This document shows, in pieces, positions 5,558-57,990 of a stretch of DNA of 64,000 nt (positions are counted from its first letter, which is position 1; each line of letters begins with the position of its first letter). Below the pieces are notes generated by a model, which saw only the letters and a program-made list of their open reading frames with translations, did no database searches and was not told the DNA's origin. Origin of the DNA: Onthophagus taurus. Lineage: Eukaryota; Arthropoda; Insecta; Coleoptera; Scarabaeidae. The position numbers and the translations under genes were made by a program. The stretch is from contig NC_091973.1 in NCBI RefSeq assembly GCF_036711975.1, forward strand, positions 1,736,001 through 1,800,000. The letters are read 5' to 3'.

Positions 5558-5791
5558 ATGATGTGGATTATAAATTTGCAGTAAGAATAACTCTATTCTT
5601 TGGTGGTGGTGCTTCATTTTATTGGAACAATTTTTTTTCTATTCTTCATTTTAAAAAAATTAATGCGGGGTTTCTTTTATTTTAGGAAAAATTGTAAAGA
5701 AACCATCGTGATGTATCATCCGACAGCGCTTGATCCTTCTCATCTTGCAATATTTTTTGTTTTTGTGTTCGAGTTTTTAAAAATTATTTGA

Positions 5792-12700: not shown

Positions 12701-15700
12701 AATTACCATCAATTACTGCGCAAGTATTTATAATAACCGGGTTTGTAACTTGCTCCAAATTAGCTGCGATCGTTTCTAACACCGTTTTCGACTCCGTCAA
12801 CGACGAAAATAACCCTCTACTAATATACAATAACAAAACAGTTTCATTGGAAGATATGTTACTCATATTAATCGTTTGTAGCGCTTGTTGAAATCCCAAC
12901 GAATGATTTGTGGCACCTTATACACAAAAAAAAATATATTAAAAATAAAAATAAGTTAGATTTTTCTTTATTTACCAGTTCCTTTAGGTAAAGAATCAAT
13001 AAAACTATTCAATAAATTTTTATTGTGCATCGTTGCTTTTGACATGACATAGGGATCACCGAAAGGAGGGGTCTCATTTGGCATAAGACAATGATCGGTT
13101 ATTAAAGGAGACGTCCAAACATCCGACAACGCCAAAAGACCAACTTTGTCATTTTCCCTGAGATATGCAATCATTTGCTTCGCTAAAGCTTTAACAATTT
13201 TGAATTGCTGCTTTGTCAACGATCCACCGTGGTCGATCAAAATCATGATGTTCCTCTCTTTGGTTATAACACGCGACATATAATTTTTCCAGAATAACGG
13301 TTTATCCTGTTTTTTACATTTCGAAATAAAAGCATCCGTGTCCGTTTGTACGTTATAATTTGACAGAAAATATTGCAGTTTTATTGCGCGTTTAATCACT
13401 TCATGTCGCTTGACATTTTGTAACTTTGACACTAAAAAATATAAATGAAAATAAATATAAATAAATAAAAGAAAAATGATTAATTACGTTCTAAAATCTT
13501 CAAAATTGGTTCTTCGTTTAAAATGGAATTTGACACCTCGTCGAAATCCACGTTATCATGACAAGGTAATACGAAAGAATGAATTTTTGTATTTTTAGAG
13601 GTGTAATAATGACTCTCGATTATCTCGCGCGTTTTATTTAGTATTGTGAGCGATTCCTTTAGCCTCCCTTCCAATTTATCTGCTATTTTTATTAATGTTT
13701 TATCTACATCTTGAGCAATTGTGGTGTGTTTAAATTTTTTGAAAACATTCTACAATTAAATACGTTATATACAGTGTGTTTAATTTTAATTGTCATAATA
13801 AATATCTCGACTACTGTTGGAGATATGACAAAAACAAACATATCACAAATAATTAAAGAAAGAAATAATATGAAATATTAAGATATCAAATTTCTGAATT
13901 CAAAATAATCTCTGAAGATAACCGACCGCCCCAAATATTGTTGGTGATATAAGAAATAAACTCGGGCGACTTCGAAGACGTCGGCCGCCCCAGTATCAAG
14001 GAGAATACTTGATACTTATTGTATTGTTCGTATCATGATGCTTATTGTTCATGATTTGCTCTCAGATGCGTCATGAATAATACTTAGTGCGGCCGACGTC
14101 TTCGAAGTCGGCCGAGATTATTTATTTTAACCTATTTGCAATTTATGGAAAAAGTAACCTCGGCCGACTTCGAAGACGTCGGCCGCACTAAGTGTTGTTT
14201 TTGATACTTAGGTTGGGTTGCAGGCGAAGATCATGCTCCATCACGAACAATACTTATGGCGGCCGACGTCTTCGAAGTCGGCCGAGATTATTACCTATAT
14301 CAACAGAAATAATCTCGGCCGCCCTAAGTATTGTTTGCGATACTTGGGTTGGGTTCTGTTTGGCTGAGATTATTTCTCAACCCAACCCAACCTACGTTTT
14401 GTACTTGATACTTAGGTTGGGTTGCAGACGAAGATCATGCTCCATCACGAACAATACTTATGGCGGCCGACGTCTTCGAAGTCGGCCGAGATTATTACCT
14501 ATATCAACAGAAATAATCTCGGCCGACTTCGAAGACGTCGGCCGCCCTAAGTATTGTTTGCGATACTTGGGTTGGGTTCTGTTTGGCTGAGATTATTTCT
14601 CAACCCAACCCAACCTACGTTTTGTACTTGATATTTAGGTTAGGTTGCAGGCGAAGATCACGCTCCATCACGAATAATACTTATGGCGGCCGACGTCTTC
14701 GAAGTCGGCCGAGATTATTACCTATATCAACAGAAATAATCTCGGCCGACTTCGAAGACGTCGGCCGCCCTAAGTATTGTTTGCGATACTTGGGTTGGGT
14801 TCAGTATCATGGAGAATACTTGATACTTATTGTATTGTTCGTATCATGATGCTTATTGTTCATGATTTGCTCTCAGATGCGTCATGAATAATACTTAGTG
14901 CGGCCGACGTCTTCGAAGTTGGCCGAGATTATTTATTTTAACCTATTTGCAATTTATGGAAAAAGTAACCTCGGCCGACTTCGAAGACGTCGGCCGCACT
15001 AAGTGTTGTTTTTGATACTTAGGTTGGGTTGCAGGCGAAGATCATGCTCCATCACGAACAATACTTATGGCGGCCGACGTCTTCGAAGTCGGCCGAGATT
15101 ATTACCTATATCAACAGAAATAATCTCGGCCGACTTCGAAGACGTCGGCCGCCCTAAGTATTGTTTGCGATACTTGGGTTGGGTTCTGTTTGGCTGAGAT
15201 TATTTCTCAACCCAACCCAACCTACGTTTTGTACTTGATACTTAGGTTGGGTTGCAGGCGAAGATCATGCTCCATCACGAACAATACTTATGGCGGCCGA
15301 CGTCTTCGAAGTCGGCCGAGATTATTACCTATATCAACAGAAATAATCTCGGCCGACTTCGAAGACGTCGGCCGCCCTAAGTATTGTTTGCGATACTTGG
15401 GTTGGGTTCTGTTTGGCTGAGATTATTTCTCAACCCAACCCAACCTACGTTTTGTACTTGATACTTAGGTTGGGTTGCAGGCGAAGATCATGCTCCATCA
15501 CGAACAATACTTATGGCGGCCGACGTCTTCGAAGTCGGCCGAGATTATTACCTATATCAACAGAAATAATCTCGGCCGACTTCGAAGACGTCGGCCGCCA
15601 TAAGTATTGTTTGCGATACTTGGGTTGGGTTCTGTTTGGCTGAGATTATTTCTCAACCCAACCTACGTTTTGTACTTGATACTTAGGTTAGGTTGCAGGC

Positions 15701-18700
15701 GAAGATCATGCTCCATCACGAACAATACTTATGGCGGGCGACGTCTTCGAAGTCGGCCGAGATTATTACCTATATCAACAGAAATAATCTCGGCCGACTT
15801 CGAAGACGTCGGCCGCCCTAAGTATTGTTTGCGATACTTGGGTTGGGTTCTGTTTGGCTGAGATTATTTCTCAACCCAACCCAACCTACGTTTTGTACTT
15901 GATACTTAGGTTGGGTTGCAGGCGAAGATCATGCTCCATCACGAACAATACTTATGGCGGCCGACGTCTTCGAAGTCGGCCGAGATTATTACCTATATCA
16001 ACAGAAATAATCTCGGCCGACTTCGAAGACGTCGGCCGCCCTAAGTATTGTTTGCGATACTTGGGTTGGGTTCTGTTTGGCTGAGATTATTTCTCAACCC
16101 AACCCAACCTACGTTTTGTACTTGATATTTAGGTTAGGTTGCAGGCGAAGATCACGCTCCATCACGAATAATACTTATGGCGGCCGACGTCTTCGAAGTC
16201 GGCCGAGATTATTACCTATATCAACAGAAATAATCTCGGCCGACTTCGAAGACGTCGGCCGCCCTAAGTATTGTTTGCGATACTTGGGTTGGGTTCAGTA
16301 TCATGGAGAATACTTGATACTTATTGTATTGTTCGTATCATGATGCTTATTGTTCATGATTTGCTCTCAGATGCGTCATGAATAATACTTAGTGCGGCCG
16401 ACGTCTTCGAAGTTGGCCGAGATTATTTATTTTAACCTATTTGCAATTTATGGAAAAAGTAACCTCGGCCGACTTCGAAGACGTCGGCCGCACTAAGTGT
16501 TGTTTTTGATACTTAGGTTGGGTTGCAGGCGAAGATCATGCTCCATCACGAACAATACTTATGGCGGCCGACGTCTTCGAAGTCGGCCGAGATTATTACC
16601 TATATCAACAGAAATAATCTCGGCCGACTTCGAAGACGTCGGCCGCCCTAAGTATTGTTTGCGATACTTGGGTTGGGTTCTGTTTGGCTGAGATTATTTC
16701 TCAACCCAACCCAACCTACGTTTTGTACTTGATACTTAGGTTGGGTTGCAGGCGAAGATCATGCTCCATCACGAACAATACTTATGGCGGCCGACGTCTT
16801 CGAAGTCGGCCGAGATTATTACCTATATCAACAGAAATAATCTCGGCCGACTTCGAAGACGTCGGCCGCCCTAAGTATTGTTTGCGATACTTGGGTTGGG
16901 TTCTGTTTGGCTGAGATTATTTCTCAACCCAACCCAACCTACGTTTTGTACTTGATACTTAGGTTGGGTTGCAGGCGAAGATCATGCTCCATCACGAACA
17001 ATACTTATGGCGGCCGACGTCTTCGAAGTCGGCCGAGATTATTACCTATATCAACAGAAATAATCTCGGCCGACTTCGAAGACGTCGGCCGCCATAAGTA
17101 TTGTTTGCGATACTTGGGTTGGGTTCTGTTTGGCTGAGATTATTTCTCAACCCAACCTACGTTTTGTACTTGATACTTAGGTTAGGTTGCAGGCGAAGAT
17201 CATGCTCCATCACGAACAATACTTATGGCGGGCGACGTCTTCGAAGTCGGCCGAGATTATTACCTATATCAACAGAAATAATCTCGGCCGACTTCGAAGA
17301 CGTCGGCCGCCCTAAGTATTGTTTGCGATACTTGGGTTGGGTTCTGTTTGGCTGAGATTATTTCTCAACCCAACCCAACCTACGTTTTGTACTTGATACT
17401 TAGGTTGGGTTGCAGGCGAAGATCATGCTCCATCACGAACAATACTTATGGCGGCCGACGTCTTCGAAGTCGGCCGAGATTATTACCTATATCAACAGAA
17501 ATAATCTCGGCCGACTTCGAAGACGTCGGCCGCCATAAGTATTGTTTGCGATACTTGGGTTGGGTTCTGTTTGGCTGAGATTATTTCTCAACCCAACTTA
17601 CGTTTTGTACTTGATACTTAGGTTAGGTTGCAGGCGAAGATCATGCTCCATCACGAACAATACTTATGGCGGGCGACGTCTTCGAAGTCGGCCGAGATTA
17701 TTACCTATATCAACAGAAATAATCTCGGCCGACTTCGAAGACGTCGGCCGCCCTAAGTATTGTTTGCGATACTTGGGTTGGGTTCTGTTTGGCTGAGATT
17801 ATTTCTCAACCCAACCCAACCTACGTTTTGTACTTGATACTTAGGTTGGGTTGCAGGCGAAGATCATGCTCCATCACGACCAATACTTATGGCGGTCGAC
17901 GTCTTCGAAGTGAAGATACCTCCTGGTGCTTACATAATAAATTTGTCAAGGAGAACAATTAAAATACTTGGTTACAATTGACGACAAGTATGGTATTGGA
18001 CCGAATACAAGAACTCTGCTTGAAATTTATGGAAGAAATAATCTCTACTGACTAAGTATTGTTCATGATGCTTGGGGTTATTTCTTGTATCATGAACAAT
18101 ATTCAGGAATTGGAGTATGTTATAAAAAAACTTTTAGAACAAAAGTTATTGGAAATTTTATTCTTCCACCATTTAAATTTATTTCTCCCTTTTTTTCATT
18201 CCTTTAACTCTTCTACATGGACAATCCTGGAATTGTGAAAAAATCATAATAATTTGAGTACAGTGTAAAGTGAATTTTAACAATATTTTTATATTTTCAA
18301 AATAAACTCAGCAAAAAAGTGAGGCATTTTTAGTTCAGTAAAGTAACCTTTTTGTTCATGATACAGCAAAATTTCATTAAGAAAAGTTGTTTGGAATGAG
18401 AAATTATGGCACTATGCAAAATTTCAGAAAGATCTACCATCATTTTTAGATTAGATCAGAGAGAAGGAAAAAAACAATATCAAATATCTGAATTCAAAAT
18501 AATCTCTGAAAATGGCAAAAAGGCAAAACTAGTCTTTAAATTAAAGACCAGTTCGAAATACAATTGTATTATCCCTCAGATCTAATTCAAATTTGAATTC
18601 CTCTTACATTATGTTAATCTTAGAACAGAAAATTTTCGAATATGTAATAACATTGTCATATTTCCAACAATAATAAAGATATCTCCTGTGACAGCTAAAA

Positions 18701-18945
18701 TCAAAAACTGTATAGTTTAAAGAAAATTTGATGTGACATACATTTATGAAATCAACTCCTAAATCTTCATTAGTAATGGTGGCAATTTCTTCTTGAATTT
18801 TTTCTGCAACCAGTTCAAAGGAGCCGACGATTTTTTCGCCTGAGACATCGCCTTTCTTGGTAATATTCTTACCGGAGGAACAACAGATCAAGAACACAAA
18901 AGCGATCAGCACCAAAAACCATTTCAGATTACCATAACAGCACAT
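6762..18945 (-). CDS. CACHD1: VWFA and cache domain-containing protein (CACHD1), alpha-2-delta-like
   Basis: Type I membrane glycoprotein related to alpha-2-delta subunits, known to modulate voltage-gated calcium channels and, in vertebrates, Wnt signalling. Exons in transcript order: 18945-18742, 13749-13488, 13431-12976, 12916-12707, 12652-11903, 8599-6762. They total 3720 nt, 1239 aa, against about 1270 in vertebrates, and every junction keeps phase. Exon 1 encodes a signal peptide (MCCYGNLKWFLVLIAFVFLI). Exons 3-4 encode the VWA domain with metal-site variant DHGGS in place of DxSxS. Exons 5-6 encode two cache domains (TYAFLIDKDGNTIMHPSYP; CFMMDDRGYLIYHPN). They are followed by LDLDGSTRLCRHLNQIATL, a Cys-rich block (CLNCNRMEQKECECPCECPL) and one transmembrane helix near residue 1090. 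The cytoplasmic tail keeps the vertebrate-like SDHGYSTMTPHDESEH. Introns 1 (about 5.0 kb) and 5 (3.3 kb) are expanded by tandem repeats; the other three are 50-60 bp. Confidence 0.95.
8790..11800. repeat. Three tandem copies of a 933-bp unit inside CACHD1 intron 5
   Basis: Landmark GGAACATCTCTAGATAATTCGA occurs near 8791 (variant GGGACATCTC), 9739, 10672 and 11605. Units 2 and 3 are exactly 933 bp apart and nearly identical; unit 1 is slightly longer and more diverged, and a fourth is truncated near 11800. Each unit carries seven near-palindromes of the CGGCCGAC...GTCGGCCG type, two modules with TTTTAGAACA(A/C)AAGTTGTAGC, and one inverted copy of the 223-bp monomer of intron 1. All lie in the intron, so splicing removes them. 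Confidence 0.93.
13915..17935. repeat. Higher-order tandem array (223-bp monomer, 1494-bp period) in CACHD1 intron 1
   Basis: Monomer start (TGGCTGAGATTATTTCTC) occurs at 14583, 15190, 15413, 15636, 15854, 16077, 16684, 16907, 17130, 17348, 17571 and 17789. Spacings are 607, 223, 223, 218, 223, then the same series again, then 218, so the higher-order period is 1494 bp. Two complete higher-order units lie between about 14583 and 17571, with partial ones on each side. The 607-bp segment is a monomer plus a variant block (GTATCATGGAGAATACTTGA...). Each monomer has two near-palindromes in opposite orientation. The open frames that run through it are by-products of the repeat, not genes. Confidence 0.94.
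17917..18215 (+). repeat. Dispersed repeat module, copy 1
   Basis: Starts CCTCCTGGTGCTTACATAAT directly at the end of the intron 1 array, where a palindrome is cut short, and runs to TCTTCTACATGGACAATCC. It shares about 260 bp with 19707-19966, with many substitutions. Its second half matches the TTTTAGAACAAAAGTT module of the palindrome-ended family, so it is either an older relative or a chimera of that family with unrelated DNA. It lies in CACHD1 intron 1. Confidence 0.8.
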
Positions 18946-21200
18946 TTTCTAGGTTATGTTTCACATCCAACCAGCGAATTCGTGAATCCCGAAAAGCAAA
19001 ATTCGTTCCAGCGGATAGAACACATCACAGACTTTGACACTGTACCAATTTTTTTTAATAAAAGCTCTTTAGAACGATTTTCGTTTCGCTTTAGCAATGG
19101 CGTATTAAAATGTAAATAAATATAAACTATTTCTGCTTCTATTCCCACACTTCGCCCGAGAAGCGTACTTCGTAGCTACGCGATTAGATGGCGCAAAAAA
19201 CGGTTGGTAAAGTTTCCTTCTAAATCATATCACAACAATAATATAAAGTAATTCTTAGTTTTTGTAGATGTAAAGTTAACTTGCAAGCTAAATAATGACG
19301 TTTAATAATTAATTGTATTTAGGTAATATCGTTAGAGAAATCCGTAGAATCTGTATACAAGGGTAATAGGTATTATTAGTTGTGGTATTGTGCAAAAGAT
19401 GGCGCTTAATATAAAATTTATTAATTGACAATGTAATATCATTGAGGGGGAACATAAATAAATATAAATATCCAACAAGCTGGACATAAACCAGCCAGCG
19501 AGGCACTGGGATATTAAAAACTCAATCCAAGACTTGTACGATATGATATTTTAAAAATTTCATTCCGATTAATAACACATATTTGTGATTTGTATTGAGT
19601 TTCGCTAACAATCATGCATTTATATCATAGACCACGAAGGTTATGTTGAAAAGACACCCAGAGGACACCAAATGAAGACTGAAAATCAACATTATGAAGA
19701 CTAATTACCTCCTGGAGATTATTTAATAAATTTGTCAAGGAAAACAATTAAAATACTTGAATACAATTGTCGACAAAAATGGTATTGGAACCGAATACGA
19801 GCACTCTGTTCGAAATTTATGGAGTATTATTTCTTGTATCATAAACAATACTCAGAAATCGGAGCATGTTATAAAAAAACTTGTAGAAAAAAAGTTATTG
19901 GAAATTTTATTCTTCCACCATTTAAATTTATTCCTCCCTTTTTTATTCCTTTAACTCTTCTACATGGATGTCTACATACAGGATGTTATTCACAGTTAGA
20001 TTGGTGTAGGTCTTCTTGATGGCGATCTAGAATTGAAGCAAAAACATATTTTTTCTAAAATTGAAAAATTGCAAATTGGAAAAAGGTGATTTGTGAAAAC
20101 AATCCCGAATAGAATATACAGCAAAGCTATATATATGTAATATAATCTATTAAAAAGATATGATATCATCAAAGTATAGTTTTTCATTTATTCTATATAT
20201 TTCCGTTGAAGTTGGATTTTGAGCAGATGTGGACTTGTACGGTCGGAAGAATTGCAATTTCGCAATAACCCATTAGGGTCCTCATTGTAGTCTTACCCAA
20301 GTTTTTTTTGATCCGCGGCGAATGTAACGAAACGAACACCTGGAACTCACCCCTTACTTGTTTTAACCGAGCATCGAAAGCGTTAAAAAAACCGGATCGA
20401 ATGGATAGGGATAGGCGATGAATGAATGGGGTAGCATAATGGAATCTGAGACATACCGGCCTCTCTCACCCTTACTGTACCCTTTTCATTCACGTGCATC
20501 CGTGAGGATGCTGCTCCCGCCGTCTGCCCGCCCTGCTAGGTGGGTTTTGTTGAGTAGAATTGAGTAACGGTTCTATATACATATAGGGCGATTTCAAAAT
20601 TTTATTTTTATAGATTTAATGATAATTTATGATCATTCATTCAAAAAAATGTCGGTGACAAATTATTTTATATTTCAACAAAAAAAAACCAAAGTCACTT
20701 TGACTATGTAAAAACTTGCATTAGAAATTCTATTTCAGTCCCTAATTGTTGACGAAACGTGGGCGATGTTAGGGTCTTGTTTAGGATGACTGATCGACGT
20801 AGTGCATTTTCGGGTTGAATGTCATCCAAATCAGAATCCTAATCAACACATTTAACTAATATAATGAATGGCTATCAGTTTAAATAAGTAGTTGATTTTG
20901 ATGCATATTTTGATTAAAAATTTATTCCGCTTGTAGCGGAGTAAAAAAATCCTACAAATGGTATTGTCCAACTTAAAATTTTTAACTGGATAATAGCAAA
21001 ATCATGTACACGTCATAGGGGATGACACGTTGAAGCTCGCTATGGAAATTCGCTTTTAGTGACCGAGTAGAAGCGAATGCTAATTGATCGTCACGATTGT
21101 TTACGCTTTATCGTGTCAATTAGTTCTTTAAAAAAAGCGCATGATTAAACAGAAAATATCAAACTAGGTTAAAGTTAAAAAAAAACGTACCCTAACGTTT
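18946..21200. other. Intergenic, upstream of CACHD1; no gene seen
   Basis: Contains the CACHD1 promoter side (18946-19300), the second copy of the dispersed module at 19707-19966, and a GC-richer stretch at 20320-20560 (GTGAGGATGCTGCTCCCGCC, CTGCCCGCCCTGCTAGGTGG) that I cannot assign. Short ORFs here (19309-19506, 19732-20019, 19996-20187) lack any recognisable product. I saw no clear TATA box or initiator. Confidence 0.5.
19707..19966 (+). repeat. Dispersed repeat module, copy 2
   Basis: Begins CCTCCTGGAGATTATTTAAT and ends TCTTCTACATGGATG. It is collinear with 17917-18215, but the middle palindrome linker is shorter. The pair shows the module occurs outside the tandem arrays. Confidence 0.8.
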
Positions 21201-25536: not shown

Positions 25537-27017
25537 CAGTGGCGTAACTACGGGGTCGCAAAAGGACGCATTGCGTCGGGGCCCGTCGCCCTTGGGCCCT
25601 CAAACGATTTTGAAAAAATTTAAAGATTTTAATTAGTAAAATTTTGTGTTTAAAACTTTTTAAAATTCCCAAGAACGGGTAAAAAACTGCTGAGGGAATG
25701 AAAAATAAAATTCTATCTATATTAGACGAAATGAAGATACCAATTGAAAAATGTATTGGTCAAGGATACGACGGAGCAAATGTAATGAGTGGTATATACA
25801 ATAGTCTGCAACAAAAAATAAAGAACATTCAACAAAATGCAGATTACGTTCATTGTGCAAGCCATAATTTAAATCTTGTCATAAAAAATGCAATAGAGAA
25901 AAATAAAGATGTGTCCGCATTTTTCGTTACACTCCAAGAAATATATTCATTTTTTGGAAATTCTATTAACAGATGGGATTTGCTTTCAAAGTTCACAGGC
26001 GAATCAAATGTAACTTTAAAAAAATTAAATCCTACTCGATGGTCTGGAAGATTGACTTCTCTAGATTTAGATGAAGCCAAAACTGTTTTGAACCAAGCTT
26101 ATAATAAAGTTTCAGAAAGTTGATCAAAATTTACTAAAATAAAAGGTGAGGCTGCAGAAATTGCAAGAACTTGGAATGTTCCCCTTGAGTTTCAAAAGAA
26201 ACGACAGCCTAAAGTGAAACACCATTTTGATGAATTGGCGAAAAATTATCACTTTTCTTCAAGAGAAGATATGTTTAGAGTTGGAATATTTAATGTTGTC
26301 ATAGATACTATTTCACATCAACTACATGACAGATTTAAAAGCATGGAAAAATTAAGAAATTATTTTGGATTTCTGGATCCACAAAGATTATCAACGTTAA
26401 AAGACAAAGATATTTTAAAAGAATGTGAAAAATTACAAAAGAAGTATTCAACTTTTTTAACTGAACAATTTTCATTGCAATTTATTCATGTTCATTCGCT
26501 TTTAAAAGACAAGTTAAAAGAATTGCAAAGTGTAAAAGATTTTGCTAACTTAGTAATGACCAAATATAATTGCTTAGAAACTGATATATCGGATGTATTT
26601 TCTGATTTTATATTGTTCTTCACACTCCCTGTAACAGTTGCTTCTGTAGAAAGATCATTTAGCAAGTTAAAAATAATAAAGGACTATAGAAGAATTAGTA
26701 TGCGACAATCGCGGCTGAATGATCTTTCTATATTAGCAATTGAAAGCAGTGAGGCTAAGAAAATGGATTTAAAAAATTTAATAAATATATTTGCAGCGAT
26801 GAAATCTAGAAGAAAACAACTTTTGTAATAATTTAGTTCTTAGTTCTTGGTTTTTGTTAGTAAATTTGAAAATAAATAAGTATTTTCAACTTAATTTGTG
26901 TTTTTTTTTCTGTATACCATAATATGTATACATAGTATTACTACCTTTGCTATAAAGACAGGGGCCATTTACAAAATTTTGCGCCTGGGCCCATATTTTC
27001 TAGTTACGCCTATAGTG
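25537..27017 (+). mobile_element. Decayed hAT-superfamily DNA transposon
   Basis: Imperfect terminal inverted repeats: CAGTGGCGTAACTA at 25537 against the complement of TAGTTACGCCTATAGTG ending at 27017. Both ends also carry a GGGCCC-centred subterminal block. The interior encodes hAT transposase sequence on the plus strand (next entry). No convincing 8-bp target duplication remains, so the insertion is old or its edges have changed. Confidence 0.85.
25698..26828 (+). pseudogene. hAT transposase remnant (ZMYM1/DUF4371-like)
   Basis: Once encoded a hAT transposase with an RNase-H-like core. Visible blocks: CIGQGYDGANVMSG followed by YVHCASHNLNLVI (core region typical of DUF4371/ZMYM1-like proteins), LNPTRWSGR, and the C-terminal dimerisation block (LPVTVASVERSFSKLKIIK, then RLNDLSILAIES). 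An in-frame TGA at 26121-26123 splits it; the reading frame is the same on both sides. The N-terminal zinc finger and first catalytic Asp region are absent, since only about 160 bp separate the left terminal repeat from the first codon. It is therefore not functional as it stands. Confidence 0.88.
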
Positions 27018-27029
27018 AATTATATATTA

Positions 27030-27681
27030 GTTGTCACAACAGATATTTCTGTTGGAGAGATGACAAAAACTATTGCTCTCAGGTGCGTAAATATCGTGGA
27101 AAATACTGAAATTTGCTCAATTTCTGAGTGTGAAACCAAGTCTACGCTGATTGAAATTTATGGAAGAAATAATCTCGGCCGACTTCGAAGACGTCGGCCG
27201 CCCTAAATATTGTTCATGAGATTATTCGGCCGCCCCAAGTACTCTTTGTGATATAAGAAATAACCTCGGCCGACTTCGAAGACGTCGGCCGCCCTAAGTT
27301 CATGATACTTGGGACGGCCGACGTCTTCGAAGTCGGCCGAGTTTGTTTCTTCGTATTTTTCTCGATATTTATGCATCTGAGAACAAAAGTGGAAGAGAGC
27401 AATATTGTTAAGAATGAAATTTGGTACAACTTTTGTTCTAAAAGTTTTTTTATAACATGTTCTGATTCCTGGGTATTGTTCATGATCTCGGCCAACTTCG
27501 AAGACGTCGGCCGCCCTAACTATTGTTCATGATACTCGAGATACTCTGAGTATGAAGCCAAGTCTACCCTGATTGAAATTTATGGAATAAATAATCTCGG
27601 CCGACTTCGAAGACGTCGGCCGCCCTAAGTGTTATTCAAGATACTTTTAGAACAAAAGTTGTAGCAAATTTTATTCTTAAC
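27030..27681. repeat. Cluster of the palindrome-ended repeat, left of captured gene fragment
   Basis: Five near-palindromes of the CGGCCGAC/GTCGGCCG type lie at about 27175, 27255, 27312, 27485 and 27597. They are joined by TAAGTATTGTTCATGATACTTG-like linkers and TTTTAGAACAAAAGTTGTA modules in both orientations. The cluster ends in a 67-bp block (27615-27681) repeated exactly at 28457-28523. Confidence 0.88.
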
Positions 27682-28444
27682 TAAAAATTAGAGGCAAATA
27701 TTAAAAAAATTCCAACAATAATAAATAAATAAAAAGTAAAATTATTTATATTTTTGTTTTAGAACGAATTTCAAAAAGTGATTGCACAAAAAGAGAGGGT
27801 ACAAATTGTTGTGAGCGATGTTAATGAAACTGATGATGGTAAAATATTAAAATTAACACTAATACATACAGTGTGTTAATTAATTATCGCACCCGACGTC
27901 ATCATTGCAAATATGCAACCAATATCACAGTATTTATTTTATAATACACGAATACATATACTGTGATATTGGTTGCATACTTGCAATGATGACGTTGGGT
28001 ACGATAATTAATTAACACTCTGTATTTATCAAAAATTTTTTTAGTAAAATCTCAAGTACCTAAATTTATGATACCTTCACCATTTGATGCGGGGGTTACC
28101 CGGCGGGTAAAACACGCTTATTCAACTTTGGACGCAGTTAGTGTTCGAACTGGGGTATTTTTGAGGCGATATCCATTGGGTAGAGTTTTTGTTTTCTCTT
28201 ATATGGTAATAAATAATTGCTATTAATTTGTTTGGAGGACTGATACATCCTCTGTTCGTTTGTAATTCAAAAAATTCGAAAAAATAAGGGATGTAGAAGT
28301 CCTCTTAGATTCTACCATGCTTGATTTGTACTTAATTTTTATAAATTTTAGGTGCTTTTACATTTATGGATGATGATTATCTTATGTACTTATATGCCAA
28401 GTAATAAATAAATCGAATTAAATCAGTTTTTGGAAGTTTGGAAT
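27682..28444 (+). pseudogene. Inverted duplicate of the Golgin-84 3' end (exons 4-6 with introns)
   Basis: Plus-strand copy of the region 29907-30653 of the minus-strand Golgin-84 gene. It begins within the last 11 bp of exon 3, where the following donor GT reads GC, and includes introns, so it arose from DNA and not from mRNA. Exon 4 equivalent 27763-27838, exon 5 28045-28205, exon 6 28352-28411; lengths and frames equal the parent. By my comparison the 297 coding bases differ at six sites, five of them silent and one Ala-to-Gly. The copy has no promoter, start codon or upstream exons of its own, so a protein product is unlikely unless a nearby transcript supplies them. It ends GGAAGTTTGGAATG at the edge of a palindrome repeat. 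Confidence 0.9.
27868..28024. mobile_element. Short inverted-repeat MITE in captured intron
   Basis: A 157-bp element with near-perfect long terminal inverted repeats: TACAGTGTGTTAATTAATTA and its complement, ending CACTCTGTA at 28024. The arms are about 65 bp and contain CGACGTCATCATTGCA and CCAATATCACAGTAT. The 5'-TAC ends suggest a Tc1/mariner-type MITE with TA targets. It sits at the same intron position as 30326-30468. Confidence 0.87.
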
Positions 28445-28650
28445 GACGTCTTCGAAGTCGGCCGCCCTAAGTGTTATTCAAGATACTTTTAGAACAAAAG
28501 TTGTAGCAAATTTTATTCTTAACAGCATTGCTCTCTTTCACTTTTGCTCTCACATGCTTGAAAATTTTTTGGATTGGTAGGTTTACAAGTTGTTAGTCCA
28601 CCCCGTTTGTAATTTATGGAAGAAATTCGGCCGACTTCGCCAATAATAAC
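28445..28650. repeat. Palindrome-ended repeat, right of captured gene fragment
   Basis: Starts mid-palindrome (ACGTCTTCGAAGTCGGCCGCCC), continues through the exact 67-bp block 28457-28523, then runs on as normal element interior (CTCTCTTTCACTTTTGCTCTCA) to a diverged end near 28635. Confidence 0.83.
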
Positions 28651-29074
28651 GATATCTGCTTTGACAGCTAAAATCAAAACATACTGTATATAATAAAAAT
28701 TGATTTTATGAAATATATTTGTAACTACATACCTGCTCTTTACCATCTCTTATTTATAATATCTAATGTACCTAAAAAAATCATACATCATATAAATCCA
28801 ACATTGTTGAGGTTATGTAAGTTTTTCTAATGACATTTAATCCAAGTTTCGATCGACTAATTCTTCAACATATTTGTATATAACAATTTATATTAATATG
28901 ATAACAAATATTGTTATTTAATAATTAATAATTTAATCATGCAATAAAAATGAAGCTCAAATTTTTGAAATTATAATTAAAAAAGCTTTAATAATTTACT
29001 TTGTTATGACAGAAACGCCTTAAAATCAATCGAACATCTCTAAAAGAATTAAATGACTTGTAAACAGAAAGAGA

Positions 29075-29745
29075 ATGGATAGTTACTCAAAGAATTTAAA
29101 TCCTAAGATAGTGGAGAACGTTTCGGAGAAGTTTCAAAAACAGTTAATTAAACGTGAGTTGTTCTAATTATTTTAATATTAATAGGTGTTTTAAAGAATG
29201 CTTTTTAGTTGCTCTAAAATCAGTAAACGAATCTGAGGTTATATTATTAAACGATTCAGCATTACTAAAGCTAAAAGAAGAAAATAATATTAATGATGAG
29301 GTATTATACGATCTGGTTGGAATCTACATAGCGGTTATTAATTTATTCTTATGGAACAGCAAGGAGGAATTTGAAGAAAAATTATTCAATGCAGGTTTTC
29401 CTCAAAGCTTTATCGACAACCTACCCTTTAACCAGAACAATCGGGATGTGATACTTTCGAATGTACAAAAAGAAAACACGGTTTCTGTAGATTATAAAAT
29501 AGATATTAGTTTAAATAATAGGTAAAATTATTTTGTTTTGGTAAAAAATAAATAATAAAATGCATCTTTTTAGTTCTTTAAAGAAAATTATTCCACCATG
29601 GGTTATTCTCAACTTAAATCAAGGTGAAAAGAAGGTTAATTTTTCCATGGATAGTGCCACATTCCACAAATTACGTTTTAGTTTAGCCGAACTTCTTAAG
29701 GAATTACAAAGCGTTAAAAATATGAATATTGTAAAAAATAAATAA
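29075..29745 (+). CDS. COMMD5: COMM domain protein, COMMD5-like
   Basis: Subunit of the Commander/CCC complex, which works with retriever and WASH in endosomal recycling (known for COMMD proteins). Exons 29075-29153, 29209-29521 and 29574-29745 give 187 aa, against about 190-225 in the family. The first intron (29154-29208) must use the second AG: the first AG, at 29184, leads to a stop within a few codons. The C-terminal COMM domain is clear: VDYKIDISLNN, SSLKKIIPPWVILNLNQ, then TFHKLRFSLAELLKELQSV. The F-x-x-LR-x-S-x-A-x-x-LKE pattern is closest in memory to COMMD5; the paralogue call is less sure than the family. The stop lies 194 bp from the convergent Golgin-84 stop, so the 3' UTRs may overlap. 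Confidence 0.85.
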
Positions 29746-29939
29746 ATTTTATAACTCAAATAGAGTATTTTGATTTCTTTAATTTTCTAAAAATTATTAT
29801 AACACGTTTTATTTCATTTTTTTTAATAAAATATAAAATCTATCAACAATCACTAGAATTAAATATTACACGAACAATTTATAAATAATAAAATAGTTTA
29901 TACTTCATTCCAAACTTCCAAAAATTGATTTAATTCGAT

Positions 29940-31852
29940 TTATTTATTACTTGGCATATAAGTACATAAGATAATCATCATCCATAAATGTAAAAGAACC
30001 TAAAATTTATAAAAATTAAGTACAAATCAAGCATGGTAGAATCTAAGAGGACTTCTACATCCCTTATTTTTCGAATTTTTTGAATTACAAAAGAACAGAG
30101 GATGTAGAAGTCCTCCAAACAAATTAATAACAATTATTTATTACCATGTAGGAGAAAACAAAAACTCTAGCCAACGGATATCGCCTCAAAAATACCCCAG
30201 TTCGAACACTAACTGCGTCCAAAGTTGAATAAGCGTGTTTTACCCGCCGGGTAACCCCCGCATCAAACGGTGAAGGTATCATAAATTTAGGTACTTGAGA
30301 TTTTACTAAAAAAATTTTTGATAAATACAGTGTGTTAATTAATTATCGCACCCGACGTCATCATTGCAAGTATGCAACCAATATCACAGTATATGTATTG
30401 CAATACGCAAATCGTGTATTATAAAATAAATACTGTGATATTGGTTGCATATTAATTAACACACTGTATGTATTAGTGTTAATTTTAATATTTTACCATC
30501 ATCAGTTTCATTAACATCGCTCACAACAATTTGTACCCTCTCTTTTTGTGCAATCACTTTTTGAAATTCGTTCTAAAACAAAAATATAAATAATTTTACT
30601 TTTTATTTATTTATTATTGTTGGAATTTTTTTAATATTTACCTCTAATTTTTCAAGTTGAATTCTCAACGCGTTTCTTTCAGAAGTGATCGTTTCAAGTG
30701 TGTTTTGTTTAACCATTAAAGTTTGCGTTAAAGAATGTAATCTTGATTCAAAATCTCCCACTTTTCCCACGCCGGTAAACTCCTTTAGGCGATTTCTCGT
30801 TTCTTTTAGCTCATTCCCAGTTAAATTTAACAAATTTTTCGTCTCGTTGAGTTCGTTTAAGCTGGATTGAAGCTCTTTCGTTTTAATTCGGCATTCTTCT
30901 TCGACGAAACCGCGCATTTTCTTCTCATTGTTCAGGCTTTCTTTAATACTTTGTATGGATAGGTGATGAGATTTTTGTAAATCGACGTAATTTCGTTGTA
31001 AATCATTTAAAGACGCGTTTAAATCGTCGATTTTCTTTGTAAGTTCGTTGTTTTTGGTTTGTTGGAATACTAATTCGTCTTTTAATTGGTTGTTATATTT
31101 GTTTAAAAATTTATCGGACTCATTTTCTGAGGAGGAATTTTCGTTACTTGATGATTTATGTGATAAAAGTTTTTCTTTTTCTTGTAGGATTCTTTGAGCG
31201 CGATTTTTATACTGTTCCATTTCATTTTGGGCTATTGATACTGATTCGTTGGCTCGTTCTAATTGAGATTTAACATTAATATTTTCGTTTTGTAACTCTG
31301 AGTATAAATGTTGTAGGTTTAATATTTGCTTATTTAATTCGCGGTTATCAGACTCTAATTTTAATATCTTTTCTTCCATGTTTATTTGAAACTCATCTAT
31401 TATGTGGAAACTATTTTCTCTTGACAATAATGATGAAGATGTTGAAAGTTGCATTTCTGCATTATTTATTTCTAACAAATACAAATTATTGAGATAAAAA
31501 TTTATTAACTCTAAGAATTATTTACCTGGCGGGTTTAAAACATTAACACCATCATCACTTTCATCTCGCTCAACCTTTTCAACAGCTTGTATTGACATAT
31601 TATGATCATTATGATCTGAAACTTCTACCTCAATAAACTTGGAAGTGGATTTAACAGTAGGAATAGCTTGGATATAACATTCTGGATCGTTAGACCTACA
31701 AAATAAAATACATCAATATATTAATTGGAGGAACAAATCAACTTTTCTTACTCATTTTTGGGCAAGTTATCGTTTAGAACGTTGGCGGCGTTTTTGTCGA
31801 TTTTATTGAGTAAGTCTTCCGCCTTCCCTGCTAAATTTTGCAACCAAGCCAT
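29940..31852 (-). CDS. GOLGA5: Golgin-84, Golgi tethering coiled-coil protein
   Basis: C-terminally anchored Golgi tether that captures intra-Golgi vesicles and helps keep Golgi ribbon structure (known for the family). Exons in transcript order: 31852-31752, 31695-31526, 31471-30642, 30572-30497, 30305-30145, 29999-29940, 465 aa. That is shorter than fly (about 516) and human (731) proteins. The start MAWLQNLAGKAEDLLNKID is the family N-terminus. Exon 3 is one long coiled coil. Exons 4-6 encode the conserved C-terminus: FMIPSPFDAGVTRRVKHAY, RTGVFLRRYPLARVFVFSYM, and a tail-anchor transmembrane helix VLLHLWMMIILCTYMPSNK. Intron 4 contains a truncated MITE (30326-30468). Most of the 3' half is duplicated in inverted orientation at 27682-28444. 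Confidence 0.95.
30326..30468. mobile_element. MITE in Golgin-84 intron 4, one arm shortened
   Basis: Same element as 27868-28024: TACAGTGTGTTAATTAATTA at one end and CACACTGTA at the other. About 28 bp of the right arm (the part with TTGCAATGATGACG) is missing here but present in the duplicate. The duplicate therefore keeps the older, fuller form. Confidence 0.85.
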
Positions 31853-35214: not shown

Positions 35215-38200
35215 CTAGCTGAGCTGACCGCGTTTCGCCGCCACGTTCTGACAGAAAGGACCCATCAAGATGTATTTTAATTGTGGCATGTAGTCTATCA
35301 CGTCTCGAAGCTGAACCATCGTTACTATTTCATGGAGGTTTTGACATTTACCATTTTCCAATAACACCCGCATTTGAGAGCTAAAAGAAATATTCATTTC
35401 AATACAACAACTTTTTGTGTCTATTTTATTAATTTAATTTTTATTTACAAATAAAAAAACACTTCAAAACATTGAGGAACAAATACCTACTGGCCAAGGG
35501 AGAAAAAGCGACAGAATCCATAAAAAAAACATACCATAAAACTCCAAACACAGCCAGAAATAAGCTCGAAACGCAAAAACTAAGCAAACAGATTTAATTA
35601 GTAACGATCTGGATGACTTTGTTATACTTTATTCTTCGTCTTTCGAGGTTGGTACACTTTGCTTCAAGAAGCAACTCAACGCCATAGTGATTATTAGGGA
35701 ATAGAGTATATTTCGAAAATTTTTCAACTCATTTGAGTTATAAAAACGTATTACAAACCCAATTAATTTATTCTTGTGAGATAATAAGAAAAGATGCGAG
35801 ACAGATAATCAATTTGGATCCACCTAAAGCTCAATCAGTATTTCGTAAAAAAGGATGTTTCTTGTCCACATGAAAAATTTAATTAAGATATTAATACATA
35901 ATAAAATCAATCTATCTGTAATAAATACAATGAAATTAAAAGTGGGGTAAATTTAAATTGCAAAATAAGAAGCCAAACAAACTCAAAAATTCACCTTTCC
36001 TTTCCAATTTATTAATTGAAATTGTTACTTACGTATTTCCTTTAAAAATCTTAATTCCTAAAGCTTGCATCGCTTGATGCAGAGATTGCACTGGAACGTT
36101 ATTAAAAAAATTCATGGCCAACTCGTTTAATGTCACTAACAGATCCGAAAAGTTGTATGGCTCATAGTTAATGCACTGAATCATTTTTTCCTCCAAAAGT
36201 GCTTTTCGCATTTTGTAAGGAAACCCGACTGTGTTAGCTTCGTGAGCCGGCAACGTTTTGCGGTAACCCATGTTCACCCTTCCGTTCGTCATACTGGATC
36301 TTTCCTCTTGTAACGCAGACGTACTGTGTGGCGGTTGGTGTACGGATTGCTGATGTGCCGGTTGTTGATTTACTATTGTATGATTTTGATTGTTGTTCCT
36401 AAAAAGAAATAAAATTAAATTAATACAAAAATAACATTAAATTTATATTTAAACTCAAAAGAAAAGTTTTATTCAATCCCGAGAAAATTTTCCGAAAAGC
36501 ACGTATTCCAGGAATAGGATCAAGGACAAATGAAAATGCACTAACTTATCATGCCAATATACCGTTCTTTTAGTCGCAATTTCTTCAGGGCTTAGCCACT
36601 AAGCTAATCTTAGATTTTACCGTCAACACAACATTAATAAGTCTCAAACGAATTCATAACTTTAAAGCTAAAACATTCTTTGTGAATCAAAATCCATTTC
36701 AAAGTTTTTAAAAATTATCGGCCAAAAAAATATTTTGATATATTCACAATATAGAGCATGTCTTATTATTTCGATATGAAAGAAAATTGAGTGAAGCCAC
36801 GCCGAGTGGGATTTGAGTTATCCCCACCTCTGGGGTGTTAGAAAATACGTCGACGTCTTGTGCCATCAATAACATTAAAGCAATATGTATTCATTGCAAT
36901 TCACCACAAATTTAATAGAAAAAAAAATACAAAAAAAGAAGAAAACCTGTAAATGTAGAATGTGAAGTTTGTTGAAAATAAAATTTTTCCATATTCTAAA
37001 GCCACTTGAATATTTAGAACCAAATATTGAAGTTAGAATACCAGATTTTGATGATAAAACGAAATATATTAACTGTTTTGAGATTATGTTTGCTGCCCTG
37101 GGAGCAAAGATGATAGAGGTTTTAAAAAAAAATGAATATAATTACAGATGTGTTAAATTTAACATAGATCTTTATTGTATTACGTTGAATTTAAGCCAAA
37201 ACTGCTTTTATAACTAACAATAATGTGTAATTGTGCATTTATGGATTAATTCTTTTTCTTCAATATTTTTATAATTACAATTCATCCTTGTATGGAGTAA
37301 TTTAGAATTTACCTAAATCTCAGGAATTCCAAACCAAACATTTTATAAATTTTACGATACGTTTTACTCTCAGGAAGATTTCCTGTAAAGTGAGAATACA
37401 AGATTTATTGATAACATTTGAAAACCACGAGGTCTACGACAGGGAGATGAGAGATGTGTGCTTTTTAACATTGCCCTGGAAAAGGTAGTAAGAGATGCAA
37501 GAACAATATTCAACAAGTCAACGCAGATCTCAATACAGAAAGTTCATCCAATACTTTAATGCGACCGTCGGCGTTACAACTTCGAGTTGTATCTATAGTT
37601 AAATTTATCAGAGATAGACATAAAAAGTATCACTACAATTATTTTTAATCGCCGTGGATTTGTGGGTAAAAGATCGGTTGGGAGGTCGAAGAGACGATTT
37701 GTGGACGATAAGAGAGAATGTAGGTCAGGTATTGGAGACAACAGGCGTGAGATAGAAGAAAGTAAGCTTAGAAGGAACTATTAAGGCAGGCCAAGGTTCA
37801 CAACGAGCTGTAGAGCCAAGCATGATGATGACTATATAGAGCCAAATATATGATGGCACTATATTATAAATTTATAACTGACCGAAATCAATAGAAAAAC
37901 CATATATCAAATAATTGTAGCGCCTCGCCCGCAAGCGACCTCGGCTTAAATAGATAATCTCATAGATTTTCCCCCTAGCTTAGCTAAGATATCACATTAA
38001 TATTAAATTAGTCAACACATATTGCAGGATACTTATTCCATCAAAATCCTACATTCTCTGTTCTGAGTTTAACCAAGATTTTTGCAGCTGAGGCACAGCA
38101 AAATATTAAGATCGCTAAGGCCAAGGCGTCACAGTATATGTTAAATAGTTTGCCAATCCAATGTGTCGACTAGGTTTTGGTCAATATAGTATTAATTCCA

Positions 38201-41200
38201 GGACCTCGGCCGCAAGCGACCTCGGCTTAATTAGATGAAATTATAGTTTCTCCTTGCTAACTTGACCCAATCCAATCTTATGTGTTGACTAGGTTTTGAT
38301 TAATATAGTATTAATTCCGGGGCTTCGGCCGCAAGCGACTTCGGCTTAATTAGATAAAACCATATTTTCTCCATGCTAACTTAATTCAAAGCAATTAAAT
38401 CCTATTATAAAGTCATTTTTATGATAAATGTGTTCTCCCTCAAGATTCTTTCATGATAGAGATCCCAAGAATCCTGTTTTTGATTTCCATTATCGTAATG
38501 AAGAAAGAAAAGAACAAAAATGATAAGAAAATCAAAAATTTTTTAAGAACCATTCGTGGAATTCGAGATATCAACTTTCAAGGTGACCCATTTCGGTCGA
38601 TAAATGGAGGTTCTTTGAATTTTAAGTACACTACATGAATCGGAGGCTCCTCACTTTCGAACTGGGCGGAGCTTAAAACCCCAACATATCTCAAAGTTCA
38701 ACAAATATTTGATTACAAAAGCAACTGTAAAAAAAAACAAATCGGTTAAACGAAGTCGGGTTAATCACAAATTTGGTGAATTAAAAGCTTTTTAATTTTT
38801 AGTTAGAGGTTATTTTGAAATGAAAACAGTAAAATTTGTGATAGTGAATCATTAAAGATGGGTTAAAGTGAAATGCTTTTTAGATTGATTAAAAAAGTTT
38901 TATGATACAAAATCATAAAATTTAGACGTTAATTTTTAAATTGCTTTAATTACTTACGCCTGCGAACTTAAATCCACAACGTCACTTGTCGAATAATGGT
39001 TTTGAGCTGTCGTTGGAAACCTCATTCCACCGTTTATATGACTCGTAACCTGCGGCATTGCACTTGGATACTTGGATAGTTGGGGTGAACCCTGACGGTA
39101 ACCCGTTTGATCCACATTGGTATCGCCCAACATTAAATAATTTCCCGCAACCGTGGTTTGAGCGGTCGTGTAGCCCAAAGGTGCTCTAAAATAAAAATTC
39201 TTTTAATGATTTTTTCTCAATCAAAGTCTTAAATTTCTCAGAAGTATAAAAATAATACTCTTCATAAATATCATATAACAATTAAGGTTTATTATTAGAT
39301 GCCTTCCTTATCAGAAACTTAAATTTCATTACGTAACATGATCGAACAATTGGCACTGTATTTTATAACAAAAAATTCGATTATATGTAATCAAAAATTA
39401 AATTTTTACTACCGATTATTTTCATTTCCAATAACTCTATATTTACAGGGAAACAAATTAACATTTTTGGGCCTGATAAAAGGTGAGATATATTCCTATT
39501 ATTCCAAAAAATTATTCACGATGAATAACCCAGTCGGAAATTTGTTTCAAATTTGCTAAAAAATTTACGGAAACTGATTAAATTATGAGTAAATCTAAGA
39601 AAATGTTTTGTTACTTCTTAAAAGCGATAAACAAGGAATTCGTTTTTAAAGAAATTCAGAAATCACCTATTTGCACTGCTAATTAAATAAATCAAATTAC
39701 AAAAGAAAAAATTGTTGGGGTGAAATAGAAACGCTTAAATAGGAAAATTAAGTCTAGTTTTACAAGATAAGAATTAAATCTTAAATTACATCTGAAAGAT
39801 CTTGCTTTTATATTAAACAAAATAATACGGCATTTGATAAGAAAGATTTCTAGGTGAATTAACACTTTGAACCCAATATTTAATTTAATTCTTAAATTAA
39901 TAACTTTTGGTTAAGGGGGGAATACATTAACGAAATTCTAAGTAATTCTAACTTCCGGTGTAATGTGGAGGGCACTCTACCACTAATAATTTTTAAAAAT
40001 TTTCTTTGTTCAAAGTTCTTAGGTTTACATAGAACAGGATTTCTCAACCAGGGCGCGCCTCCCTAGGGGGGCGTAGAAAAATAATCACGAATAATAATAA
40101 GTATCACGAATTAAGTATTGTTTTTCATGAGAAAACACTCTGATTCGGAGCATTCTACAAAAAAACTTTTAGAACAAAAGTTGTAGCAAATTTCATTCTT
40201 AACAATATTGCTCTCTTTCACTCTTGCTCTAAAATGTATAAATATCGAGAAAAATACGGAAATATGAAAATTTGCTGAATTCGTAAGTTGTTAATGGTAT
40301 TCGAGATTCGGACACAAAGTCTACCCTGCTTGAAGTTTATGATAGAAATAATCTCGGCCGACTTCGAAGACATCGGCCGCCTTAAGTATTGTTCATGACA
40401 CTTATATCAAGAATAGTTGGGAATCGAAGCATACTACAAAAAATCTTTTAGGACAAAAGTTGTACGAAATTTCATTCTTAACAATATTGCTCTCTTTCAC
40501 TATTGCTCTCAGATGCATAAATATAGAGAAAAATATGAAAATTTGCTGAATTCACAGTTTTACAAGTTGTTAATAGTATCACTCTGGATTCGAGCGTGAA
40601 TCTAAATCTATCTACTTGAATGCTATGGAAGAAATAATCTCGGCCGACTTCGAAGACGTCGGCCGCCCTAAGTGTTATTCAAGATACTTGGGTTGGGTTC
40701 TGTTTGGCTGAGATTATTTCTCAACCCAACCCAATCTACGTTTTGTACTTGATACTTAGGTTGGGTTGCAGGCGAAGATCATGCTCCATCACGAACAATA
40801 CTAAGTGTTATTATTCAAGATACTTGGGGCGGCCGACGTCTTCGAAGTCGGCCGAGATTATTCCTTATATCAAGAACAGTCGGGATTCGAAGCATGCTAT
40901 AACAAAACTTTTAGAACAAAAATTGCACCAAATTTCATTCTTAACAATATTGCTCTCTTTAACTATTACTCTCAGATGTATAAATATGAAGAAAAATATG
41001 AAAATTTGCTGAATTCACAGCTTTACAAGTTGTTAATGGTATCACTCTGGATTCGAGCGTGAAACTAAATCTATCTGCTATGGAATGCTATGGAAAAAAT
41101 AATCTCGGCCGACTTCGAAGACGTCGGCCGCCCTAAGTGTTATTCAAGATACTTGGGTTGGGTTCTGTTTGGCTGAGATTATTTCTCAACCCAACCCAAC

Positions 41201-48880: not shown

Positions 48881-49033
48881 AGATCTGCATTTATTTTTGA
48901 GCAAGCAGAAGCGAGGTGTTCCTTTGGAAAGGTGAATATACGTAATAAAAAAAAACTGATTGCAAAAGACTTAGGGTATTGTTTTATGCCTCCTGAACAA
49001 TTTATTAAAATGGAGCTGACTCATTATTCAAGG

Positions 49034-50228: not shown

Positions 50229-50310
50229 AACGAATTTTAATTAAAAAGTTGTTATTAATAATAAAAATAAAGTATTGTGGAGGTTTTTAAAACAGATAAC
50301 GCGCCATATT

Positions 50311-50335
50311 TTTCCACGTGACGTGACGTATCAGT
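50311..50335. promoter_or_regulatory. E-box/CRE-like cluster upstream of MIER1
   Basis: CACGTG at 50315-50320 is followed directly by ACGTGACGTATCA, an E-box next to half CRE sites, 350 bp before the MIER1 start codon and in the first GC-richer DNA upstream. Function is inferred only from motif content. Confidence 0.35.
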
Positions 50336-50670
50336 GTAAATTGACGCTTAAAGTTTGTGTTTTGAGAAATCTCGAGTTCCCTTCGCCTCTGATTTAAACA
50401 CTAAAGAATTTCAATTCATCAATTCGACGAAACCCCATATCAAAGAGCCAAATCGTTTCTTTCAAACGCAATATCGTTTTTAGTTCGATTTCGAACTGAA
50501 TGTAAAGGCAAATTTTCGCGGTTACGTTTGTTTTGATGCTGTTCTAACCTCAAAAAGTTTCGAAGAGACTTTTTTAATGTTCTCCTACCGTTTTAAATTT
50601 ATATATCACGGTCGTTTTTCATCGGTGTTATGTGTTATGAAATCAAGGGTTTTGTAAATCGTCCAAGAAA

Positions 50671-57990
<7,320 letters not shown>

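What the first reader, a model, noticed from the sequence alone, without database searches (positions are those of the whole stretch)
27615..28523. Golgin-84 3' end copied in inverted orientation and bracketed by exact 67-bp direct repeats
Seen: 27682-28444 duplicates the parent gene's exons 4-6 with introns. It is flanked by identical 67-bp blocks, 27615-27681 and 28457-28523, both made of palindrome-repeat sequence. Both blocks share the same odd internal junction (linker ...GATACT fused to TTTTAGAAC), so one is a copy of the other and not an independent element. Inference: the gene fragment was captured into a pre-existing palindrome repeat with a 67-bp duplication at the site, by a staggered-break or template-switch event at a hairpin-prone locus.
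Basis: partly seen in the sequence, partly recalled or inferred. Interest (0 to 1): 0.75.

Follow-up and report, generated by a model that had tools for sequence, protein, structure and literature searches.

The report
Gene tail copied into palindromic repeat
The last exons of a Golgi protein gene were copied backwards into a nearby hairpin-forming repeat, leaving a duplicated stretch on both sides, which looks like an old, imperfect repair of a DNA break and is an example of a known kind of event.

Summary
27615-27681 and 28457-28523 are identical over 67 bp. Between them lies an inverted copy (27683-28446) of the golgin-84 gene's 3' end (29905-30652), with 15 substitutions in 735 gap-free positions. 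Both blocks share a fusion junction absent from 15 other copies of that segment found by pattern in the window. The joined outer flanks align as one repeat unit with other family members, so the insert came with a target duplication.

New here: the duplication extends to about 77-79 bp, because in the right block the palindrome's 9-nt loop is inverted. Of 68 cores, the only other flipped ones are two array units. I read the flip as a scar of hairpin opening or of a strand switch through the stem.

Best explanation: a break or stalled fork at a hairpin in a repeat with TIR-like ends, repaired by copying DNA 1.5 kb away. This resembles repair-mediated duplications (Pace 2009) and single-copy Pack-TIRs (Tan 2021): a new member of a known kind. 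No genome or reads for this organism could be searched, so the orthologous empty site and assembly error remain untested.

The parts
27011..27070 (+). left TIR-like end of the repeat element; its outer part overlaps the presumed end of a hAT element at about 27017 (read by eye)
   Evidence: aligns with 13770-13835 (73%) and in part, inverted, with 18653-18701 (71%)
27169..27622 (+). pre-existing palindrome-repeat units with exact cores at 27176, 27267, 27315 (inverted) and 27598, and a one-letter variant core around 27497
   Evidence: core scan, repeat families
27598..27622 (+). palindrome CGGCCGACTTCGAAGACGTCGGCCG in standard loop orientation at the left of the insert; predicted to form a hairpin
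   Evidence: DNA fold of 27585-27640, -11.1 kcal/mol, z -3.98, 0 of 200 shuffles fold as well
27615..27681 (+). left 67-bp block (target duplication, first copy)
   Evidence: identical to 28457-28523
27683..28446 (+). inverted copy of the golgin-84 gene 3' end
   Evidence: alignment with reverse complement of 29905-30652
27763..27838 (+). copied exon 4 (76 nt)
   Evidence: splice sites read by eye
28045..28205 (+). copied exon 5 (161 nt); 28047-28205 translates and matches Golgin_A5
28352..28411 (+). copied exon 6 with stop codon (60 nt)
28445..28459 (+). palindrome remnant GACGTCTTCGAAGTC with inverted loop at the right junction; outer left stem arm missing
28457..28523 (+). right 67-bp block (target duplication, second copy), continuing into standard repeat sequence
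28524..28639 (+). rest of the host repeat unit, ending in half a palindrome
   Evidence: with the block, aligns with 9242-9430 and others
28641..28693 (-). right TIR-like end of the repeat element
   Evidence: aligns with 18668-18728 (83%) and, inverted, with 13765-13806 (79%)
29905..30652 (-). donor: 3' end of the golgin-84 gene
30603..31484 (-). open reading frame over the main coding exon of the parent golgin-84 gene (the frame runs on past the splice donor after 30642)
   Evidence: ORF; 30605-31484 matches Pfam Golgin_A5, E 8e-23

Best explanation
A hairpin-forming palindrome inside a repeat with TIR-like ends broke, or stalled a replication fork, in the germline. One DNA end, reaching to 27681, was extended by copying about 750 nt from the golgin-84 3' end, 1.5-3 kb away and on the other strand. 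The new strand then rejoined the repeat about 77-79 nt upstream of where it had left, inside the palindrome. This produced an inverted gene-fragment insert between direct duplications. The right-hand end passed through a hairpin stage: by hand derivation (no call), the sequence GAC-GTCTTCGAA-GTC-GGCC is what results if a hairpin-capped end is nicked 3 nt into the far stem arm and filled in, or if the copying strand changes polarity through the stem. Shown: duplication, insert, loop flip, private junction and paralogous empty site. Inferred: break or fork stall, the order of steps, and which enzymes acted. The copy has no evident function.
For: Blocks identical over 67 bp, both with a junction found in 0 of 15 other pattern-matched copies of the segment. 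Loop orientation relative to the flanks is standard in 64 of 68 occurrences of the exact 12-mer TTCGAAGACGTC; the other four are the right block, two array units that are flipped, and one degenerate array edge that is not flipped. Over 300 bp, units of the 933-bp array differ only by such a loop inversion (5 changed letters), so loop flips happen in this family without any insert. The palindrome folds better than shuffles (z -3.98). The right join shares GA with the donor; the left join shares AAC if a 2-nt skip is allowed, otherwise there is one extra T. Donor and copy are 1,458 bp apart, within the range usual for such captures. All five sites that can be polarised from the opposite arms of the two intronic inverted repeats are derived in the copy; two of them are adjacent and may be one event.
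Against: The blocks have 0 differences in 67, while copy and parent differ at 15 of 735. If both blocks evolved at the copy's rate since one event, zero differences has a chance of about 0.06, or 0.25 if only one of them changed. Differences are uneven: 1 in the first 240 aligned positions and 14 in the other 495 (binomial 0.022, with the split chosen after seeing the data). Coding differences are 5 synonymous and 1 replacement (0.002-0.007 under no constraint), which is odd for a dead copy and may mean that the template was another functional allele. The left junction has no clean microhomology. The paper on yeast palindrome breakage limits Mre11-complex attack to loops under 9 nt (PMC8053094, abstract), and this loop is 9 nt. 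The truncated palindrome at the right junction does not itself fold better than shuffles (148 of 200 as good). No reads and no orthologous empty site could be examined.
Confidence: 0.7

Rival explanations
1. Staggered break plus fill-in: two nicks 67-79 nt apart gave a break with long overhangs; both were filled in, which duplicated the stretch, and a ready-made golgin fragment was ligated between them by end joining.
For: Predicts the direct duplication with an insert and few shared bases at the joins, as seen. A folded 5' overhang that is capped and reopened would also give the flipped loop (hand derivation).
Against: Needs a free fragment of about 750 bp of a gene that is still present 1.5 kb away; copying explains proximity and retention of the donor more simply. 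This is an argument of economy and not a test.
Confidence: 0.15
2. No target duplication: the two blocks are the same part of two neighbouring tandem repeat units, and the gene fragment replaced what lay between them.
For: The family makes tandem arrays elsewhere in the window with 95-98% alike units, and within this element 27123-27226 repeats at 27545-27648.
Against: The earlier unit at 27193 lacks the private junction; the two units inside this element are only 89-92% alike while the blocks are 100%.
Confidence: 0.07
3. Assembly artefact: a misplaced inverted allelic or duplicated contig piece.
For: Inverted and palindromic repeats are difficult to assemble; reads were not available.
Against: 15 substitutions and 3 length differences separate copy and parent, both joins fall at plausible repair junctions, and the flipped loop is a sequence that misassembly would not readily produce (judgement).
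Confidence: 0.06
4. Transposase- or Helitron-driven capture during transposition, with later local insertion.
For: TIR-like ends at 27011-27070 and 28641-28693. That Helitrons and Pack-type elements capture gene pieces is in PMC6544945 (search listing) and PMC8277862.
Against: The insert lies inside a continuous host unit about 1.5 kb from its donor; no further copy of the fragment appears in the window's self-comparison (pieces under 80 bp and pairs within listed arrays were dropped). Helitron ends were not tested.
Confidence: 0.02

Closest known systems
Repair-mediated duplications (RDs; Pace et al. 2009, PMC2671141; abstract and passages seen)
   Same: Insert of at least 50 bp of other DNA within a transposable element, donor within 5 kb (824 of 1,136 human cases), exons captured, one of them in opposite orientation.
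   Different: Their search required the two element halves to meet within 30 bp in the consensus, so a 67-79 bp duplication at the site would have been filtered out; their proximal inserts were at most 619 bp, here 764; no palindrome loop inversion in the passages that I saw ('inverted', 'direct repeat' and 'staggered' have 0 occurrences in that text).
Single-copy Pack-TIRs made by gap filling (Tan et al. 2021, PMC8277862; abstract, section 8 and passages seen)
   Same: Non-element DNA inside a TIR element, often close to the donor (160 of 281 under 15 kb), microhomology (1-36 bp, median 2) in 190 of 281, breakpoints skewed to the interior.
   Different: They report none in the insect reference genomes that they screened (one polymorphic family in fly populations); here a long duplication flanks the insert; the element superfamily is not established.
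Template-switch rearrangements through inverted repeats, DUP-TRP/INV-DUP (PMC4352052; start of abstract in a search listing only)
   Same: Inverted segment between duplications, with breakpoint junctions within inverted repeats.
   Different: Here the inverted segment is not the duplicated segment but comes from 1.5 kb away; the scale is much smaller (scale recalled).
Loop inversions of short stem-loops, as in plastid DNA (recalled; PMC6005162 holds the phrase 'inversion of the loop' once, search listing only)
   Same: The loop of a short inverted repeat occurs in both orientations.
   Different: In the 933-bp array it is this plain form; at the insert junction one stem arm is cut off, so the flip is part of a larger event. 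Bird microinversion hotspots were reported not to be tied to stem-loops (PMC3123225, abstract), which speaks against a general rule.

Membership tests
Repair-mediated duplication (RD) | repeat element interrupted by at least 50 bp of non-element DNA | tested here: met
   764-bp insert; flanks align as one unit when joined
Repair-mediated duplication (RD) | donor still present and nearby | tested here: met
   donor 29905-30652, 1,458 bp from the copy
Repair-mediated duplication (RD) | element halves meet within 30 bp in the consensus (published search filter) | tested here: not met
   halves overlap by 67 exact bases, 79 with the loop; the filter defines their search, in my judgement not the mechanism, so I claim 'works like' and membership of the broader kind only
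Repair-mediated duplication (RD) | absent at the orthologous site of a relative | not testable with these tools
   no genome held for this window
Pack-TIR | captured DNA lies between the two terminal inverted repeats of one TIR element | tested here: inconclusive
   TIR-like ends found, but the left end is damaged at a hAT boundary and no target duplication of the element was established
Pack-TIR | microhomology at one or both breakpoints | tested here: met
   GA at the right join; AAC with a 2-nt skip at the left; two bases can match by chance, no significance test was made
Helitron gene capture | 5'-TC, 3' hairpin and CTRR end, A/T insertion site (recalled) | not tested
   no scan for these ends was made
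DUP-TRP/INV-DUP | the inverted middle copy is of the duplicated segment (recalled) | tested here: not met
   inverted segment is golgin-84; duplicated segment is the repeat block

The most novel reading that the evidence does not exclude
Loop orientation of this abundant palindrome is a recorder of germline hairpin breakage: each flip marks a hairpin end that was opened off-centre. Most flips heal silently, as in two of three 933-bp array units, and some capture neighbouring gene exons with a 67-79 bp duplication. Palindromic repeats in this genome would then be recurrent exon-copying hotspots whose events can be counted genome-wide.
Probability: 0.25. Interest if true: 0.55.

Novelty: new member of a known kind. 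Interest (0 to 1): 0.36.

Why it matters
It is a sharply preserved example of gene-fragment duplication, probably by DNA repair at a hairpin, with both joins and a loop-inversion scar readable. One published screen required the element halves to meet within 30 bp (Pace 2009) and another found none in the insect genomes that it screened (Tan 2021), so events with longer target duplications may be undercounted. It also leaves two inverted copies of about 750 bp on either side of a possible COMM-domain gene, a configuration that could promote inversion or make double-stranded RNA if read through; neither was tested.

Tried and rejected
A staggered-break chromosomal inversion was considered and rejected: it would leave the two 67-bp blocks inverted to each other (hand derivation), but they are in direct orientation.

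A small inverted triplication (PMC13334657, abstract and outline seen) was rejected because the inverted middle segment is not a copy of the duplicated segment.

The exact 25-bp palindrome core was sought in viral contigs and genome contigs: 0 matches in each. These hold viral and prokaryotic contigs, so this says little about animal genomes.

Eight literature searches were made. One returned only unrelated beetle papers. None of the papers listed was recognised as describing this locus or this repeat; no search for the repeat's letters was made.

A species name was not pursued; 'insect' is a guess from the gene content and is established by no call.

Some outputs were capped or cut: text cut; 20 of 34 direct families, 25 of 63 inverted pairs shown; 30 pieces.

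Full report
What is there. In the window (33% G+C) two stretches, 27615-27681 and 28457-28523, are identical over 67 bp, and the identity stops at once on both sides. Between them lies 27683-28446, which aligns with the reverse complement of 29905-30652. Counting gap-free blocks only, there are 15 substitutions in 735 positions. There is also a 28-bp gap in the parent, a 13-bp gap in the copy, and a 1-bp indel. The parent is the 3' end of a golgin-84 gene on the minus strand: the frame over its main exon matches Pfam Golgin_A5 at 8e-23, and the 53-codon exon matches the same family in both the parent (6e-17) and the copy (5e-16). The copy holds the last 11 nt of one exon and then exons of 76, 161 and 60 nt with their introns and the stop codon.

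The host sequence. The blocks belong to a repeat family built around the palindrome CGGCCGACTTCGAAGACGTCGGCCG, present in several clusters in the window, some of them tandem arrays. The single strand around it folds at -11.1 kcal/mol, z -3.98, with 0 of 200 shuffles as good; the truncated form at the right junction does not stand out (148 of 200 shuffles as good). The copy-bearing element has TIR-like ends at 27011-27070 and 28641-28693 that resemble two ends at about 13770 and 18700. The left end is damaged next to a hAT element (Dimer_Tnp_hAT, 4.8e-06), and I did not establish the element's superfamily or target duplication.

Why the blocks are one duplicated piece. Both blocks carry GATAC fused to TTTTAGAAC. 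A pattern for this segment found 15 other family copies in the window, and none has this fusion; 14 of the 15 continue into TAACAAT, much as the right block continues into TAACAGCAT, and none continues as the left block does, into golgin sequence (three further pattern hits that are not of the family, at 5680, 20060 and 29792, were dropped). Joining 27541-27681 to 28524-28640 gives a sequence that aligns across the join, in a single stretch at 76-77%, with 9242-9430 and five other places in the same array. The window therefore holds a paralogous picture of the empty site, with one block.

The inverted loop. Similarity between the blocks does not end at 67 bp. It continues to 79 bp at 94%, because the right block begins with GACGTCTTCGAAGTC, where the left has GACTTCGAAGACGTC: the loop of the hairpin is reversed and the outer left stem arm is missing. 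Of 68 occurrences of the exact 12-mer TTCGAAGACGTC on both strands, 64 have the standard orientation relative to their flanks. The other four are the right block, two array units at 9480 and 10413, and one degenerate array edge at 17909 that is not flipped; cores with changed letters in the 12-mer were not counted. The array units are instructive: over 300 bp units 1 and 2 are identical, and unit 3 differs from both at five letters only, all from the loop inversion. Loop flipping is therefore an event that this palindrome undergoes on its own, but a rare one: 2 of the 67 other cores, probably one event, are flipped, so a chance flip exactly at the insert junction has a rough likelihood of 2 in 67.

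Mechanism. Inferred: a break or fork stall at the hairpin; extension of an end reaching to 27681 by copying the golgin-84 3' end on the opposite strand; return to the repeat inside the palindrome, 77-79 nt upstream. The right join shares GA with the donor. The left join either has one extra T, or AAC shared with a 2-nt skip. Worked out by hand, a hairpin-capped end nicked 3 nt into the far stem arm and filled in gives the right-hand sequence letter for letter; a switch of template strand through the shared stem GTCGGCCG gives the same. The two cannot be separated here. Palindrome hairpins and cruciforms are cut by nucleases in yeast (PMC8053094, abstract and outline seen), which makes the inferred break plausible, although that abstract limits Mre11-complex attack to loops under 9 nt and this loop has 9.

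Direction and age. In two inverted repeats within the copied introns, the opposite arm shows the older letter. At all five positions that can be judged, the older letter is the parent's and the copy differs, so the copy is the derived one. Against a simple story: 0 differences in the 67-bp blocks is less than expected from the copy's divergence (chance 0.06 to 0.25); the substitutions are uneven (1 in 240 versus 14 in 495, 0.022, split chosen after seeing the data); and coding changes are 5 synonymous to 1 replacement (0.002-0.007). A divergent allele as template, later gene conversion, or both could explain this; none was tested.

Comparison. Pace et al. 2009 (PMC2671141, abstract and passages) describe over 1,000 human insertions of other DNA into transposable elements, 824 of 1,136 with the donor within 5 kb, including a reversed exon. 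Their filter required the two halves of the element to meet within 30 bp, so an event with a 67-bp duplication would not be in their list. Tan et al. 2021 (PMC8277862, abstract, section 8 and passages) describe 370 Pack-TIRs, 160 of 281 unique ones within 15 kb of their donor, with a median microhomology of 2 bp, and none in the insect reference genomes screened. The present case works like these. I file it as a new member of that kind, with the long duplication and the loop scar as its particular features.

Limits. No whole genome is held for this window, so the orthologous empty site, other individuals and reads could not be looked at. Exon numbering and hAT limits were read by eye, and the organism was not identified.

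Noticed in passing
9300-9599, 10233-10532, 11166-11465: Units of a 933-bp tandem array: over 300 bp, units 1 and 2 are identical and unit 3 differs only by inversion of the palindrome loop.
   Followed up: yes
28447-29904: Between the two inverted golgin copies lies a possible small gene: 29575-29739 has a weak COMM-domain match (E 0.0071, 16.9 bits against a cut-off of 22.4), while 29211-29519 matched no family. Recombination between the copies could flip it.
   Followed up: partly
27868-28027 and 30323-30468: A MITE-like hairpin in the golgin intron (27872-28020 folds at -60.7 kcal/mol); the parent lacks 28 bp of one arm that the copy keeps, the copy lacks 13 bp near the loop.
   Followed up: partly
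28082-28354: Five synonymous and one replacement difference between copied and parent exons, unusual for a dead copy.
   Followed up: partly
28242-28243: Adjacent TC to GA change in the copy, which is the reverse complement of the old letters, in a small intronic inverted repeat.
   Followed up: no
25537-27017: hAT element with a dimerisation domain; its end abuts the left end of the palindrome repeat. Limits read by eye.
   Followed up: partly
13768-18714: A second, longer stretch with similar TIR-like ends, filled with 223/441-bp palindrome arrays.
   Followed up: partly
1-1360; 49028-56500; 38153-38395; 17917-18221 and 19706-19968: Other tandem arrays and duplicated blocks in the window; the last pair includes pieces of the palindrome-repeat family.
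   Followed up: no
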